DNA from: Candidatus Gastranaerophilales bacterium
GTDB taxonomy: Bacteria > Cyanobacteriota > Vampirovibrionia > Gastranaerophilales > Gastranaerophilaceae
Reading direction: 5' to 3'
Length of the DNA: 40,460 nucleotides
NCBI GenBank assembly: GCA_944322955.1
Contig: CALUQQ010000022.1
Span: 1 to 40,460, forward strand
The notes below the pieces were generated by a model that saw only the letters and a program-made list of their open reading frames with translations, was not told where the DNA came from and did not search any database. The first letter of the stretch is position 1, and every line of letters begins with the position of its first letter. Of this stretch, positions 11,472-26,875 are shown piece by piece. A program made the position numbers and the translations under genes.

Positions 11472-13058
11472 ATGGACAAATTGTTAGAAAAAAAGATTAA
11501 TAAAGAATTTAAAACTGGAAATGTAAAGTCAGCTATAGAATTATGCCAGATAGGCCTGCAAAATGACCCCACTAATGCGGATTTACACATAAGGCTCGGT
11601 GATTTGTTTCTGGCATGGCATTTGGATATATATAATTCTTGCCAGTATATTGATGAAGCAATTACCGAATATCAAAGAGCGCTGGAAACTTATATTGATT
11701 CTCCCGAAATTTATTTCAAAATTGGCCAGGCGGAATTTTATAAAGGTGATCTTGATAAGGCAATTAATTATCTTGATATGGCTATTGCTAAAGATGATAA
11801 ATTCGCTAAAGCCTATTATCTTCTTGCCGAAACCTATACCAGAAAAGCAAGATTTCTGGAGGCAGGTTTGAATGCTAAAAAGGCCATATCTTGTAAACCC
11901 TTTAGAAATTCCTGCGCGCATTATCTTTTATATTCGCTGTACCGTGTTTCTTCTTATAAATGTTTGAAAACAACATTTAAGGCCTACCGGGAACTTCTAT
12001 TATCCTGGCTTACGCTGCCTTTTGATTTTCAGGCTGTGAAAAATGTTATAAAATCGCTTTCTTATCTTAAATTTCTGCCGATACTTGTCAAAGGCTTTTA
12101 CAGAGTTCATACGCGCGGCTTGAATGATGCGATTGAAGTTTATGCGGAAGCTATTGAAAAGGCTCCTGGTTTTGTTCCGTTGTATTGTCTTTTAGGTGAT
12201 ATTTACAGAACAGTCGGACAGTTTGATAATGCAATAACAGAATACAAAATGGCAATCTGGCTTGATAGTTTGAATATTTCTGCCTACAGACATCTTTGTC
12301 AGGCCTATGAAGAACTTGGAGATTATGATAGTGCCGTTGAAATTTATGAAAAATTAATTCAAATTATGCCGAATATCCCGGAATTTCATTCAAATCTCGC
12401 AAATATTTTGTATATTAAAGGCGATTTGGACGGTGCGATATCTCATTTTCAATCGGCAGTTACACTGAATCCGAATAAACAATGGACGAGTGTTATTAAT
12501 CAGACGCTTGGATTTGTATTCCAAGAATCAAAAACGGATTTGAATGCGGCAATTAGTTCTTATCAGAGTGCTTATCTTTTGACACCGGAAGATATTGATA
12601 TCTACATAAATCTCGGAAGCGCTTTTTATGATAAAGAAGATTATAATAATGCACTTGCAGTTTACAGGAATGCATTGGATCTGGAACCGGAAAATGCACG
12701 AATTCACTGTAATCTCGGATTTTTATACTGGGGAAAAGGGGACATCGACGAAGCTATCAAAGAATACGAACTTGCCATTCATTATGATAATAATTATGAT
12801 ATTGCTTATAATAATTTGGGCGTTATTTATCTTGACGATTTAGGCAGAGTGCAAAAAGCAATGGAGCTGTTCAAAAAATCTGTAGAATGTAATCCGAATT
12901 ATGCACTTGCTCATTTTAATCTTGCAAGATGTATTTCGCTAACCGGCGACAAGATTGAAGCAGCAAAACTTTATCAAATCGCGCAGGATATAAATAAGGT
13001 TACGGGTGAAATTGATCCTCAGGATATTGTTGATAAAATTAACGGTCTTTTTGATTAA
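11472..13058 (+). CDS. Tetratricopeptide-repeat protein
   Basis: 528 aa built almost entirely of 34-residue TPR units; eight or more can be seen with the A-x-x-x-Y/L-x-x-A-I-x-x-Y-x-x-A-L pattern, for example IDEAITEYQRALE, LDKAINYLDMAIA, FDNAITEYKMAIW, YDSAVEIYEKLIQ, LDGAISHFQSAVT, YNNALAVYRNALD and IDEAIKEYELAIH. A non-repeat stretch (about residues 150-210) interrupts the array. There is no signal peptide or membrane helix, so it is likely a cytoplasmic scaffold. The next gene, 27 bp downstream, is a small basic protein and probably co-transcribed. Partner proteins are not deducible. Confidence 0.88.
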   Translation: MDKLLEKKINKEFKTGNVKSAIELCQIGLQNDPTNADLHIRLGDLFLAWHLDIYNSCQYIDEAITEYQRALETYIDSPEIYFKIGQAEFYKGDLDKAINYLDMAIAKDDKFAKAYYLLAETYTRKARFLEAGLNAKKAISCKPFRNSCAHYLLYSLYRVSSYKCLKTTFKAYRELLLSWLTLPFDFQAVKNVIKSLSYLKFLPILVKGFYRVHTRGLNDAIEVYAEAIEKAPGFVPLYCLLGDIYRTVGQFDNAITEYKMAIWLDSLNISAYRHLCQAYEELGDYDSAVEIYEKLIQIMPNIPEFHSNLANILYIKGDLDGAISHFQSAVTLNPNKQWTSVINQTLGFVFQESKTDLNAAISSYQSAYLLTPEDIDIYINLGSAFYDKEDYNNALAVYRNALDLEPENARIHCNLGFLYWGKGDIDEAIKEYELAIHYDNNYDIAYNNLGVIYLDDLGRVQKAMELFKKSVECNPNYALAHFNLARCISLTGDKIEAAKLYQIAQDINKVTGEIDPQDIVDKINGLFD

Positions 13059-25525: not shown

Positions 25526-25556
25526 CAAAAAAAAAACGGCCTTTTATAAGACCGTC
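25526..25556 (-). terminator. Intrinsic terminator of the MGMAASQAR-family gene
   Basis: On the minus strand a hairpin of ACGGTCTT, a TATA-type loop and AAGGCCGT (one G-U pair) is followed directly by ten T residues. It lies about 108 bp beyond the stop at 25664 and 15 bp after the convergent toroid gene. Confidence 0.8.
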
Positions 25557-25663: not shown

Positions 25664-26716
25664 TTAACCGAAAGTTTTGAATGTAGATTCGGTGTTCTTT
25701 TCGATGACTTTTTGTACAGCATCCATTTCGTTTGAAATGGCATCCTGTTCGGTATCAAGCTGTTTCAAGCGTAATTCAAGATTTTTATCCTGTGCCTGAA
25801 TAATCTCAATTTTGGCATTGATTTCTTGAATTGATTGATCATACTGATACTTGTCATATTCGTACTGGTTCATAGCATCATCGTATGCATCTTGGTCGGT
25901 CAATGTATTTGTTGTTAATGCGTATGTGACTTCATTAATAACATCGCCGTCATCATTTTTGTCATACATTGTGATGTTTATATATCTGCCTGTAGTATCT
26001 TTTTCCAATCTTGCTGTAACGCCTTTGACTTCTTCGGTTTCTTGTGCAGAACCCATAGTATATGCGTTAATGTTGGATTGTGATGTTCCGTCTTCTGAAT
26101 AGGTTGCGTTGTCAACTTGACTTTTTCTGTAGAAGATGGGTGACCAGGTATTTGTAGATGTGTTTTGTACATATCTTACGTACCAATCTTCATCATTTCC
26201 TCCGCAGTATTTTTTGTTTAATAAATCTTTATACTGTTCTTCTTCTTGTAGTAATTGTTTTCTTTGTGTTGGCGATAATGAAAGTAAATATTCATCATTG
26301 CCTTCGTAATTGCCGTCGTCAGGGTCAATGCCAGAATTGAGTGCCCTTAATTCTGTGGAACCGACATAGAAGTTGTTGGCTGCGTCTTTAGTCACAATAG
26401 CGGTACCTGCAGCAACAGGTGTAAAGTCATTTGTCCAGGAAGAAACGTAGCTTATTAAATATTCACCATTCGGCTGAGCAATCAATGAAGTGATAGAGTT
26501 TGAAAGATTGCCGTCTTCGAATGTGTAAACGGTTTTTGTATAATCCGCAACTGAAGGCGGTGTCGGAACCGTCATACCAAGCAGCTGGTTATAGTAGTTA
26601 GCTGATTGGTTGGACAACGTTGTTCTTTGCTGGTTGATCTGTTGACCTTCATATTCTACGTTTGTCTTTCTTGCTGTCAGACCTAAAAATCTTGCCTGTG
26701 ATGCCGCCATACCCAT
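25664..26716 (-). CDS. Uncharacterised coiled-coil protein of the MGMAASQARFLGLTARK family
   Basis: 350 aa. The N-terminus (MGMAASQARFLGLTARKTNVEYEGQ, then QQRTTLSNQSANYYNQLL) is a long amphipathic helix. The C-terminal about 70 residues form a coiled coil (INAKIEIIQAQDKNLELRLKQLDTEQDAI then EMDAVQKVIEKNTESTFKTFG). The middle 220 residues are acidic, Asn/Thr/Tyr-rich and probably beta-structured, with no Cys-rich motif. Helix ends flanking a variable centre recall flagellin and hook-associated proteins, and there is no Sec signal. I recall this N- and C-terminal signature as a recurring family in gut Melainabacteria and some other phyla, without an assigned function. GAAAGGAAA precedes the ATG; a strong terminator follows. 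It is monocistronic. Confidence 0.8.
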   Translation of the reverse strand: MGMAASQARFLGLTARKTNVEYEGQQINQQRTTLSNQSANYYNQLLGMTVPTPPSVADYTKTVYTFEDGNLSNSITSLIAQPNGEYLISYVSSWTNDFTPVAAGTAIVTKDAANNFYVGSTELRALNSGIDPDDGNYEGNDEYLLSLSPTQRKQLLQEEEQYKDLLNKKYCGGNDEDWYVRYVQNTSTNTWSPIFYRKSQVDNATYSEDGTSQSNINAYTMGSAQETEEVKGVTARLEKDTTGRYINITMYDKNDDGDVINEVTYALTTNTLTDQDAYDDAMNQYEYDKYQYDQSIQEINAKIEIIQAQDKNLELRLKQLDTEQDAISNEMDAVQKVIEKNTESTFKTFG

Positions 26717-26842
26717 GACTTTGTTTCCTTTCGTTTTTTCCTTGTGCTCATGTCTACGGCATTTGTATTTTTTTTCTTCAATTTTTGACTTAAAGTTTGT
26801 AATATTTTGTTACATTTAAAGCCGTAATACACTAATAACAAG

Positions 26843-26875
26843 AAAAAAAGAGATTACACATCGTAATCTCTTTTT
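26843..26875 (-). terminator. Intrinsic terminator of the glucan phosphorylase homologue
   Basis: Inverted repeat AAAGAGATTAC (26847-26857) and GTAATCTCTTT (26863-26873) around a 5-nt loop, with T-runs on both strands. It lies about 30 bp after the minus-strand stop at 26905 and before the promoter region of the next minus-strand gene. Confidence 0.85.

What the first reader, a model, noticed from the sequence alone, without database searches (positions are those of the whole stretch)
25664..26716. MGMAASQARFLGLTARK family: flagellin-like layout without a known role
Long amphipathic N-terminal helix and a C-terminal coiled coil flank a variable acidic centre, the design used by flagellins and hook proteins, and there is no Sec signal. 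The gene is monocistronic with a strong terminator, as for an abundant structural protein. The ends are more ordered than the centre, suggesting selection on assembly.
Basis: partly seen in the sequence, partly recalled or inferred. Interest (0 to 1): 0.55.

Follow-up and report, generated by a model that had tools for sequence, protein, structure and literature searches.

The report
Cargo of a second flagellum-like exporter
This gene belongs to a large, undescribed protein family that looks like exported building blocks or cargo of a second, filament-less flagellum-type secretion machine in non-photosynthetic gut relatives of cyanobacteria, whose partial flagellar gene sets have so far been read as flagella or as their loss.

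Summary
The ORF is real but on the minus strand: 350 aa, own terminator, conserved ends, variable centre. The genome holds at least 11 members and no detected flagellin. AlphaFold (pLDDT 93) gives helix 2-47, a beta-rich centre and helix 275-349; the 22 best VIA-align rows are flagellar axial proteins, at modest Z 5.9-9.4, without sequence homology to flagellin. Of 194 class genomes 116 have the family; all 116 have the FlhA export gate, and none of the 54 without it does. 75 of 97 genomes of its taxonomic family have it but no flagellin. Sampled ones carry a separate FlhA clade (100/100); 13 checked have FlhB but no FlgH or MotB. A short hairpin copy lies 6.5-13 kb from that FlhA in 20 of 45 genomes. 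A sigma28-like promoter precedes 56 of 122 members against 6 of 647 control genes, but flagellin controls match it only in part. Best reading: late, exported subunits or cargo of a second, non-motility flagellar-type secretion system. Export, assembly and outer-membrane exit are undemonstrated.

The parts
25664..26716 (-). the family member: 350-aa protein, helix 2-47, beta-rich centre about 60-273, helix 275-349
   Evidence: translation; alignments; AF2 pLDDT 93.2
26567..26716 (-). codons for residues 1-50: conserved N-terminal helix (MGMAASQARFLGLTARK...)
   Evidence: mean identity 0.86 over 52 rows; G2, A5, S6, R9, A15, E21, Q25, N28, Q29, R31 invariant in 27 rows
25667..25936 (-). codons for residues 261-350, holding the conserved C-terminal helix (LDTEQ...KVIEKN.E.TFKTFG)
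   Evidence: mean identity 0.74 over 52 rows; helix 275-349
26753..26780 (-). sigma28-like promoter TGAAGAAA-N12-GCCGTAGA, 64 nt before the ATG (one mismatch in the TAAA box)
   Evidence: PWM score 7.0, below the 10-bit line and weaker than the 13.8-26.1 of 7 other own members
25527..25556 (-). intrinsic terminator (9-pair stem 25556-25535, then T-tract)
   Evidence: T-tract read
26845..26875 (-). terminator-like hairpin between the upstream phosphorylase-like gene and this gene; separates the transcription units

Best explanation
The gene encodes a late-class exported subunit or cargo of a second flagellar-type type III export system ('system B') of non-photosynthetic, mostly gut-dwelling relatives of cyanobacteria (Gastranaerophilales, inferred from the nearest named records). 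In the own genome system B has FlhA, FlhB, FliP/Q/R/O, FliF, FliH, a SpoA-domain ring protein and FlgB/C/F/G/E-like rod or hook proteins (FliE was confirmed in two related genomes); in the 13 genomes checked that have only system B I found no flagellin, FlgH or MotB. The family's core is a helical hairpin of about 109 aa. In the gut family f1, beta-rich or other domains sit between the two helices and the gene is multiplied (11 copies found in the own genome). A sigma28-like factor encoded next to flhB would switch on the scattered copies once the export gate is built; the unfolded proteins would pass through FlhA/B-FliPQR, and the paired end helices would stack on the rod as in flagellin, exposing the variable domain. 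Shown here: family, copy number, distribution with the gate, linkage in part of the genomes, two FlhA clades, promoter motif, predicted fold. Inferred: sigma28 control, export, stacking, surface exposure.
For: Distribution: 116 of 194 class genomes have the family, all 116 have FHIPEP, 0 of 54 without FHIPEP have it. 75 of 97 genomes of the own taxonomic family have it without flagellin, and 9 flagellin-bearing f5 genomes lack it, so it does not follow flagellin. Two FlhA clades: B 100/100, 15 rows. Of 24 genomes checked, 13 flagellin-less f1 ones have FlgH 0/13, MotB 0/13 and one FlhB match each; 9 with both FlhAs and the family have FlgH 9/9, MotB 9/9 and two or more FlhB matches. Linkage: short hairpin copy within 6.5-13.1 kb of FlhA-B in 20 of 45 genomes, all 20 among the 32 flagellin-less ones; a cluster of long member, MSYKND gene and hairpin near FliE-like ORF-FliF-ORF-FliH-FlhA is seen in 5 of 5 linked loci read. 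In the own genome a member is divergent to SpoA-FliO-FliP-FliQ-ORF-FliR, as in G187, G112 and G106 (SpoA and FliO seen). Promoter: TAAA-N14..16-GCCG before 56 of 122 members against 6 of 647 control genes; held-out PWM at 10 bits or more in 75 of 94 against 11 of 645 controls. A sigma-70-family factor, best model FliA/WhiG, lies beside the single FlhB gene in 4 of 4 f1 genomes read and beside the B-like FlhB of G002. Fold.
Against: No export or assembly was shown. No sequence homology to flagellin (hhalign probability 4%, 20 columns) and no Pfam match above cut-off. VIA-align Z 5.9-9.4 is within the range the tool gives for common helical arrangements (row 21 even has rmsd 25), and Foldseek has no match at E 0.001 or better. 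f5, f6 and f7 genomes have a B-like FlhA but no detected family member. The window gene's own promoter match has a mismatch and scores 7.0. The sigma factor scores 76 bits against the FliA/WhiG model, below its cut-off of 189.6; only the general sigma-70 model is passed. Flagellin promoters, the positive control, match only in part: 0 of 5 flagellin upstreams from f4 and f10; of 12 f1 flagellin genes read, 2 score 14 or more at 65-70 nt, 3 score 7-8 at 33-82 nt, one scores 10.6 but 268 nt away, 6 show nothing near. Of 13 different 109-aa copies outside f1, 2 reach 10 bits. Linkage is 0 of 13 in flagellin-bearing genomes. How a protein would cross the outer membrane without FlgH is unknown; FliI was not searched for; the ORF in the fliG position has no FliG match. 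G088 lacks a full-length FlhA.
Confidence: 0.68

Rival explanations
1. The long members are not axial subunits but soluble or injected effectors or adhesins that merely use the hairpin ends as export module; only the 109-aa hairpin and the early proteins build the structure.
For: Central domains vary widely (open frames from about 180 to 1006 aa) and one genome, G181, has 31 matches; late-type promoters are found on scattered genes but not on the FliE, FlgF, FliJ, SpoA, FlhB, MSYKND and C32-type hairpin genes tested (10 upstreams).
Against: The end helices are conserved along their whole length and are one long pair in the model, as for polymerising axial proteins; a short export signal would not need a conserved C-terminal helix ending in TFKTFG (inference).
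Confidence: 0.22
2. Cytosolic coiled-coil proteins (PspA-like scaffolds or regulators) that happen to be common in this class.
For: Only weak database matches, to coiled coils (PspA E 0.0026, 17.5 bits against a cut-off of 243; APG6_N E 0.037).
Against: Strict co-occurrence with FHIPEP, linkage and sigma28-like promoters; invariant N-terminal residues.
Confidence: 0.06
3. Relics of a flagellum that is being lost; the partial flagellar gene set has no function.
For: Published reading: MEL.A1 lacks filament, cap, junction, L and P rings, taken as possible ongoing reduction (PMC3787301, passages); partial sets in 6 of 9 Gastranaerophilales (PMC4040986, passages).
Against: The retained FlhA is a separate clade (100/100) that coexists with the flagellar FlhA, FlgH, MotB and flagellin in other genomes; 74 of the 75 flagellin-less f1 genomes keep an FHIPEP match at E 1e-213 or better.
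Confidence: 0.04

Closest known systems
Bacterial flagellin (Flagellin_N/C, FliC)
   Same: Long N- and C-terminal helices flank a variable, beta-rich centre; no Sec signal; several copies; sigma28-like promoters; best structural neighbours in the PDB are flagellins and other flagellar axial proteins.
   Different: No Pfam flagellin match and hhalign probability 4%; members outside f1 that I read are only about 109 aa; present in 75 f1 genomes without detected flagellin.
Flagellar basal body without filament in Buchnera (PMC8109811, abstract and outline read)
   Same: Basal-body and type III export genes kept, with no known motility role.
   Different: The abstract says that no secreted protein has been identified in Buchnera; here a multi-copy candidate substrate family exists, and the apparatus is a second FlhA clade that can coexist with a flagellar one.
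Partial 'flagellar' gene sets of gut Melainabacteria (MEL.A1; PMC3787301, PMC4040986; passages read)
   Same: The same group of organisms; their list of shared flagellum-related genes (two flhA, fliF, fliH, fliI, fliP, fliQ, fliR, flhB, flgC, flgG, flgE) overlaps system B.
   Different: There read as flagella or as loss of flagella; no secreted family or second system is described in the passages I saw.
Type III injectisome needle protein (SctF) and translocators
   Same: Layout only: a short helical hairpin with a proline-containing turn (DPDSP-like) and a neighbouring Gly/Ala/Ser-rich, moderately hydrophobic protein (highest 19-residue KD mean 1.3-1.7 in 5 sequences); the comparison is from memory.
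   Different: No type III family among the Pfam matches of 10 hairpins shown one by one; about 109 aa; FlhA-B scores closer to FlhA (696.9 bits) than to SctV (582.3) and is below both cut-offs; no usable model of the neighbour (pLDDT 34.6).

Membership tests
Flagellin (PF00669 family) | Sequence match to Flagellin_N or to a flagellin profile | tested here: not met
   Only APG6_N at E 0.037; no flagellin family among the 14 families matched by 11 own members; own genome 0 PF00669 matches; hhalign probability 4% against 5 class flagellins
Flagellin (PF00669 family) | Paired terminal helices flanking a variable domain | tested here: met
   H2-47, beta-rich centre, H275-349, pLDDT 93.2; the 22 top VIA-align rows are flagellar axial proteins, Z 5.9-9.4; arrangement level only
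Flagellin (PF00669 family) | No Sec signal | tested here: met
   KD19 at most 0.34 in the N-terminal part
Flagellin (PF00669 family) | sigma28-type promoter (consensus recalled) | tested here: inconclusive
   Family: 56 of 122 members strict, 6 of 647 controls. Window gene itself: one mismatch, score 7.0
Flagellin (PF00669 family) | Assembles into a filament outside the cell | not testable with these tools
   needs EM or proteomics
Flagellar rod/hook proteins (Flg_bb_rod, Flg_bbr_C) | Pfam match | tested here: not met
   not among the 14 families matched by 11 members
Injectisome needle or inner-rod proteins | Pfam match of the hairpins | tested here: not met
   10 of the 16 hairpins of A8 scanned one by one, no type III family at E 0.1 or better; all 16, where 25 of 32 matched families are shown
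Type III export apparatus (system B as such) | FlhA, FlhB, FliP, FliQ, FliR, FliF, FliH present in the own genome | tested here: met
   FHIPEP, FlhB, FliP/Q/R/H, FliF
Type III export apparatus (system B as such) | FliI-type ATPase | not tested
   not searched; fliI is in the shared list of PMC3787301 (passage)
Motile flagellum | Flagellin, L-ring FlgH and stator MotB | tested here: not met
   own genome 0, 0, 0; FlgH and MotB 0 of 13 flagellin-less f1 genomes
Injectisome with outer-membrane secretin | Secretin of the system | not tested
   no search left; a 122-aa ORF between FliQ and FliR has only a sub-threshold T2SS-T3SS_pil_N match (E 0.036)

The most novel reading that the evidence does not exclude
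System B is a contact-dependent secretion machine of these cyanobacterial sister lineages, evolved from a flagellum separately from the known injectisomes: the conserved 109-aa hairpin is its needle-like subunit, the neighbouring MSYKND protein (270-320 aa, Gly/Ala/Ser-rich, moderately hydrophobic) its tip or pore protein, and the sigma28-driven MGMAASQAR paralogues, the window gene among them, are the variable outer fibre or effectors presented to gut neighbours or host.
Probability: 0.2. Interest if true: 0.92.

Novelty: new variant of a known kind. Interest (0 to 1): 0.76.

Why it matters
Published genome papers read the flagellar gene sets of gut Melainabacteria as flagella or as their loss. 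The data here argue for a second, conserved flagellar-type export system with its own large family of candidate substrates, kept when the true flagellum is absent. That gives a testable answer to what filament-less flagellar basal bodies could be for in a common group of gut bacteria, points to undescribed surface or secreted proteins of that group, and offers a flagellin-like architecture without flagellin sequence for questions on how type III axial proteins arose.

Tried and rejected
Sequence and profile searches for a known relative: Pfam, NCBIfam, PHROGs, PDB sequences: only sub-threshold, mostly coiled-coil matches, and none at all for A4 in the PDB. Foldseek against PDB and viral models: no match at E 0.001 or better; phage PA14-domain proteins at rank 1 of the viral list (E 0.0014) were not followed. 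The MSYKND partner gave no usable AF2 model (pLDDT 34.6), so I did not search with it. Homology between the hairpins and MSYKND: hhalign probability 5%, rejected. A phylum-wide search (386 genomes) gave, outside the class, 5 genomes at E 1.7e-4 to 1e-3, taken as chance coiled-coil matches, not followed. An upstream alignment of 7 genes first suggested the promoter. The idea that the family tracks the flagellum was rejected by 75 f1 genomes with it and without flagellin and 9 f5 genomes with flagellin and without it. Paper searches for a second type III system or a secreted family in these bacteria; none of the listings or passages I saw describes one; I read no whole text, and most subscription journals are not held. 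Exceptions: G169 has one flagellin match but no type-A FlhA; G027 (88% complete) has flagellin but no FHIPEP. Rows dropped: only f1 genomes whose full-length hairpin and FlhA-B coordinates were both printed were used (45 of 97). In one search two of the controls are in truth family genes missed by my start motif (L173, L185), one of them among the 6 control hits. In one search, 12 of 14 fetched flagellin loci gave a readable start; upstream 300 nt were scanned there, 160 nt elsewhere.

Full report
What is there. The ORF at 25664-26716 lies on the minus strand and encodes 350 aa. It has no curated family: best Pfam match APG6_N at E 0.037, best NCBIfam match PspA at 17.5 bits against a cut-off of 243. 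A terminator-like site lies on either side of it on its own strand. The N-terminal 50 and C-terminal 90 residues are far better conserved than the centre (0.86 and 0.74 against 0.28-0.51, 52 rows).

Copies. The window lies in an unnamed 1.5-Mb, 78%-complete assembly of 138 contigs. A search of it gave 17 matches, which resolve into 11 different genes: five of the window gene's kind (C22, C63, C102, C64, C32) and six of a second kind (C89, C47, C18, C34, C2, C93; the last two cut at a contig end); the seventeenth match is inside the SMC gene at E 0.12. A twelfth, divergent 108-aa relative lies on C32. That the own genome is a Gastranaerophilales is inferred from these.

Minimal form. In families f4, f9 and f10 of the class the members that I read are about 109 aa: the N-terminal and the C-terminal helix region joined by a turn such as DPDSP or EPESP, with no centre. 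f1 genomes have a short copy too and longer ones with inserts; open frames up to 1006 aa occur, and G181 has 31 matches. A profile of 16 short forms, 11 of them from f1, matches the C-terminal helix of the window family at 98% (part of A8 belongs to the family by construction).

Fold. AlphaFold2 on the window protein with 51 relatives gives pLDDT 93.2 and pTM 0.62: helix 2-47, beta-rich centre, helix 275-349. In VIA-align, a second look at Foldseek's own list, the first 22 rows are flagellar filament, junction, cap, rod and hook proteins, Z 9.4 to 5.9 (row 21 with rmsd 25), and row 23 (MexAB-OprM) has 5.8; the tool warns that Z under about 13 for long helices may be a common arrangement. Foldseek has no match at E 0.001 or better; flagellins are at ranks 3, 4, 5 and 10. 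Sequence profiles show no relation to class flagellins. So: it works like a flagellar axial protein in layout; it is not a member of the flagellin family.

The export machine. The own genome has FHIPEP (FlhA) on C75 after FliF, an ORF in the fliG position without FliG match, and FliH; a SpoA-domain protein, FliO, FliP, FliQ, an ORF and FliR on C89, divergent to one of the family members; FlgF/G-, FlgG-, FlgB- and FlgC-like genes on C49; FliJ-, FliK- and FlgE-like genes on C131, the FliJ match sub-threshold; FlhB on C117 next to a sigma-70-family gene. FliE was confirmed by Pfam in the related genomes G112 and G191. The own genome has no Flagellin_N, FlgH or MotB_plug match.

Two systems. Over 29 FlhA sequences, 15 of type B (own genome; f1, f2, f4, f9, f10) form one group with support 100/100, apart from type A (8 rows, 85/88); f5, f6 and f7 have a sister of B, and f5 also an A-like copy (the program warns of long branches, and the root is unknown). 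Type B scores 696.9 bits against the FlhA model (cut-off 772.1) and 582.3 against SctV (cut-off 692.25). Of 24 genomes, 13 flagellin-less f1 ones have FlgH 0/13, MotB 0/13 and one FlhB match each; nine with A and B have FlgH 9/9, MotB 9/9 and two FlhB matches each (G056 three, with pieces); G015 (f5) is like the latter, G012 (f7) like the former, and neither has the family. The FlhB of G002 that lies beside the sigma gene is 48-50% identical to the single FlhBs of four f1 genomes and 35% to the other FlhB of G002.

Distribution. Family in 116 of 194 class genomes: 97 of 97 f1, 1 f2, 10 f4, 4 f9, 4 f10. FHIPEP in 140, and all 116 are among them; 24 have FHIPEP without the family (8 f5, 5 f6, 11 f7); 54 have neither. 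Flagellin in 50: 22 of 97 f1, 1 f2, 10 f4, 4 f9, 4 f10, 9 f5. Hence 75 genomes with the family and no flagellin, and 9 with flagellin and no family. Of those 75, 74 have an FHIPEP match at E 1e-213 or better; G088 has only weaker pieces. Genomes are related, so these are not independent events; at the level of taxonomic families, the five with type-B FlhA have the substrate family, and the three with a B-like sister do not.

Linkage. Among 45 f1 genomes for which both coordinates were printed, the short hairpin copy lies 6.5-13.1 kb from FlhA-B on the same contig in 20; all 20 are flagellin-less (20 of 32), and 0 of 13 flagellin-bearing ones are linked. One random copy would fall that near in about 2% of genomes (naive, relatedness ignored). 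In G112, G004, G118, G022 and G076 the order is long member, MSYKND gene, (90-aa ORF, not seen in G118), hairpin, then some kilobases away a FliE-like ORF (Pfam-tested in G112 only), FliF, ORF, FliH, FlhA. A member next to an MSYKND gene is also found in f2, f4, f9 and f10 loci. In the own genome this cluster is on C32 and FliF is at a contig edge of C75, so linkage cannot be read. The C89-type neighbourhood recurs in G187, G112 and G106 but not at the top locus of G136.

Promoters. An alignment of upstream regions showed a conserved TAAAG...GCCG. The test: TAAA-N14..16-GCCG within 160 nt upstream in 56 of 122 distinct family genes, 6 of 647 control genes of 150 aa or more in the same loci (one of the 6 is itself a missed family gene), 0.49 of 122 on average in shuffles. 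The gap is 16 in 50 and 15 in 6, and the bases after TAAA are G (54 of 56), then mostly TTT: TAAAGTTT-N12 or N11-GCCG, which is the FliA/SigD (sigma28) consensus as I recall it. A PWM trained on 28 of the 56 finds 75 of the 94 others at 10 bits or more, against 11 of 645 controls, at least two of which are family genes. The ten upstreams of FliE, FlgF, FliJ, SpoA, FlhB, MSYKND and C32-type hairpin genes that I tested score 3.3 or less. The window gene has TGAAGAAA-N12-GCCGTAGA 64 nt upstream, score 7.0; of 9 own members tested, 7 score 13.8-26.1, the window gene 7.0 and the C32 member 1.4. The positive control is mixed: of 12 f1 flagellin genes read, 2 score 14 or more and 3 score 7-8 at 33-82 nt, the other 7 have nothing near the start; 0 of 5 flagellins from f4 and f10 score. 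Of 13 different 109-aa copies outside f1, 2 reach 10 bits. The sigma gene beside FlhB has FliA/WhiG as its best model but below that model's cut-off (76 against 189.6 bits); it passes the general sigma-70 model in the two proteins tested and the Pfam region-4 model in three.

Reading. The pattern resembles the flagellar hierarchy: early structural genes without and late, many-copy genes with sigma28-type promoters, plus a sigma factor gene beside the export switch gene. The most likely role is therefore a late type III substrate with axial-protein layout. Whether the long members polymerise, decorate a short fibre or are released is open; I put about 0.45 on axial or surface-fibre subunit, about 0.22 on cargo or effector, and about 0.7 on export itself. 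The own assembly is incomplete, so the absence of flagellin, FlgH and MotB rests also on its five congeners at 97-99% completeness.

Known work. Di Rienzi et al. [quoted passage not shown] their list of shared flagellum genes has two flhA. Soo et al. (PMC4040986, passages) report complete sets in three of nine Gastranaerophilales and subsets in the rest. The Vampirovibrio paper (PMC4451040, passages) attributes prey spikes to a type IV system. The termite-gut genome paper (PMC5877343, passages) infers flagella and chemotaxis. Buchnera (PMC8109811, abstract and outline) keeps flagellar basal bodies without known secreted proteins. My searches listed no paper whose title or shown abstract describes a second type III system or this family.

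Noticed in passing
L019:1468-2940 (-) (G000:C97:14243-15250); also in 10 other f1/f2 genomes: A protein of about 490 aa with only the C-terminal (cytosolic) domain of FlhA, 152-182 bits, in flagellin-less and flagellin-bearing f1/f2 genomes: possibly an extra substrate-docking platform.
   Followed up: partly
L025:6930-7742 (-), L201:5867-6685, L100:1466-2410 and others: MSYKND family, 270-320 aa, conserved neighbour of the hairpin genes, Gly/Ala/Ser-rich middle, conserved ends, no Pfam match above cut-off in three tested, no usable AF2 model.
   Followed up: partly
L237:4070-4732 (-), L238:10357-11019, L239:2566-3213 (-), L240:8331-8999 (-), L241:9834-10616: FliA/WhiG-like sigma factor next to a B-type FlhB in five genomes of two taxonomic families.
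   Followed up: partly
L203:962-1786, L204:920-1738, L216:943-1767, L024:13144-14820: Other genes with high-scoring sigma28-like upstream sites (13.4-19.1 bits): possible further members of the regulon or further substrates.
   Followed up: no
L020:5670-6566 and 11743-12288; L222:9359-10195; L225:10355-10975; L240:16280-17095: Several prepilin-like proteins with nearly the same start (AFTLAEVLITLGIIG-type) close to the export genes.
   Followed up: no
G169: A genome with one flagellin match but no type-A FlhA, in a genus (g17) where other genomes score as type A (G167, G172, G185): looks like recent loss of the true flagellum with system B kept.
   Followed up: no
L232:5363-5944: Lytic transglycosylase (SLT domain, E 3e-35) inside the G191 system-B operon between FlgC and FliE.
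   Followed up: no
L023:6180-6548: 122-aa ORF with a signal-peptide-like start between FliQ and FliR, sub-threshold similarity to the secretin-associated T2SS-T3SS_pil_N domain (E 0.036).
   Followed up: no
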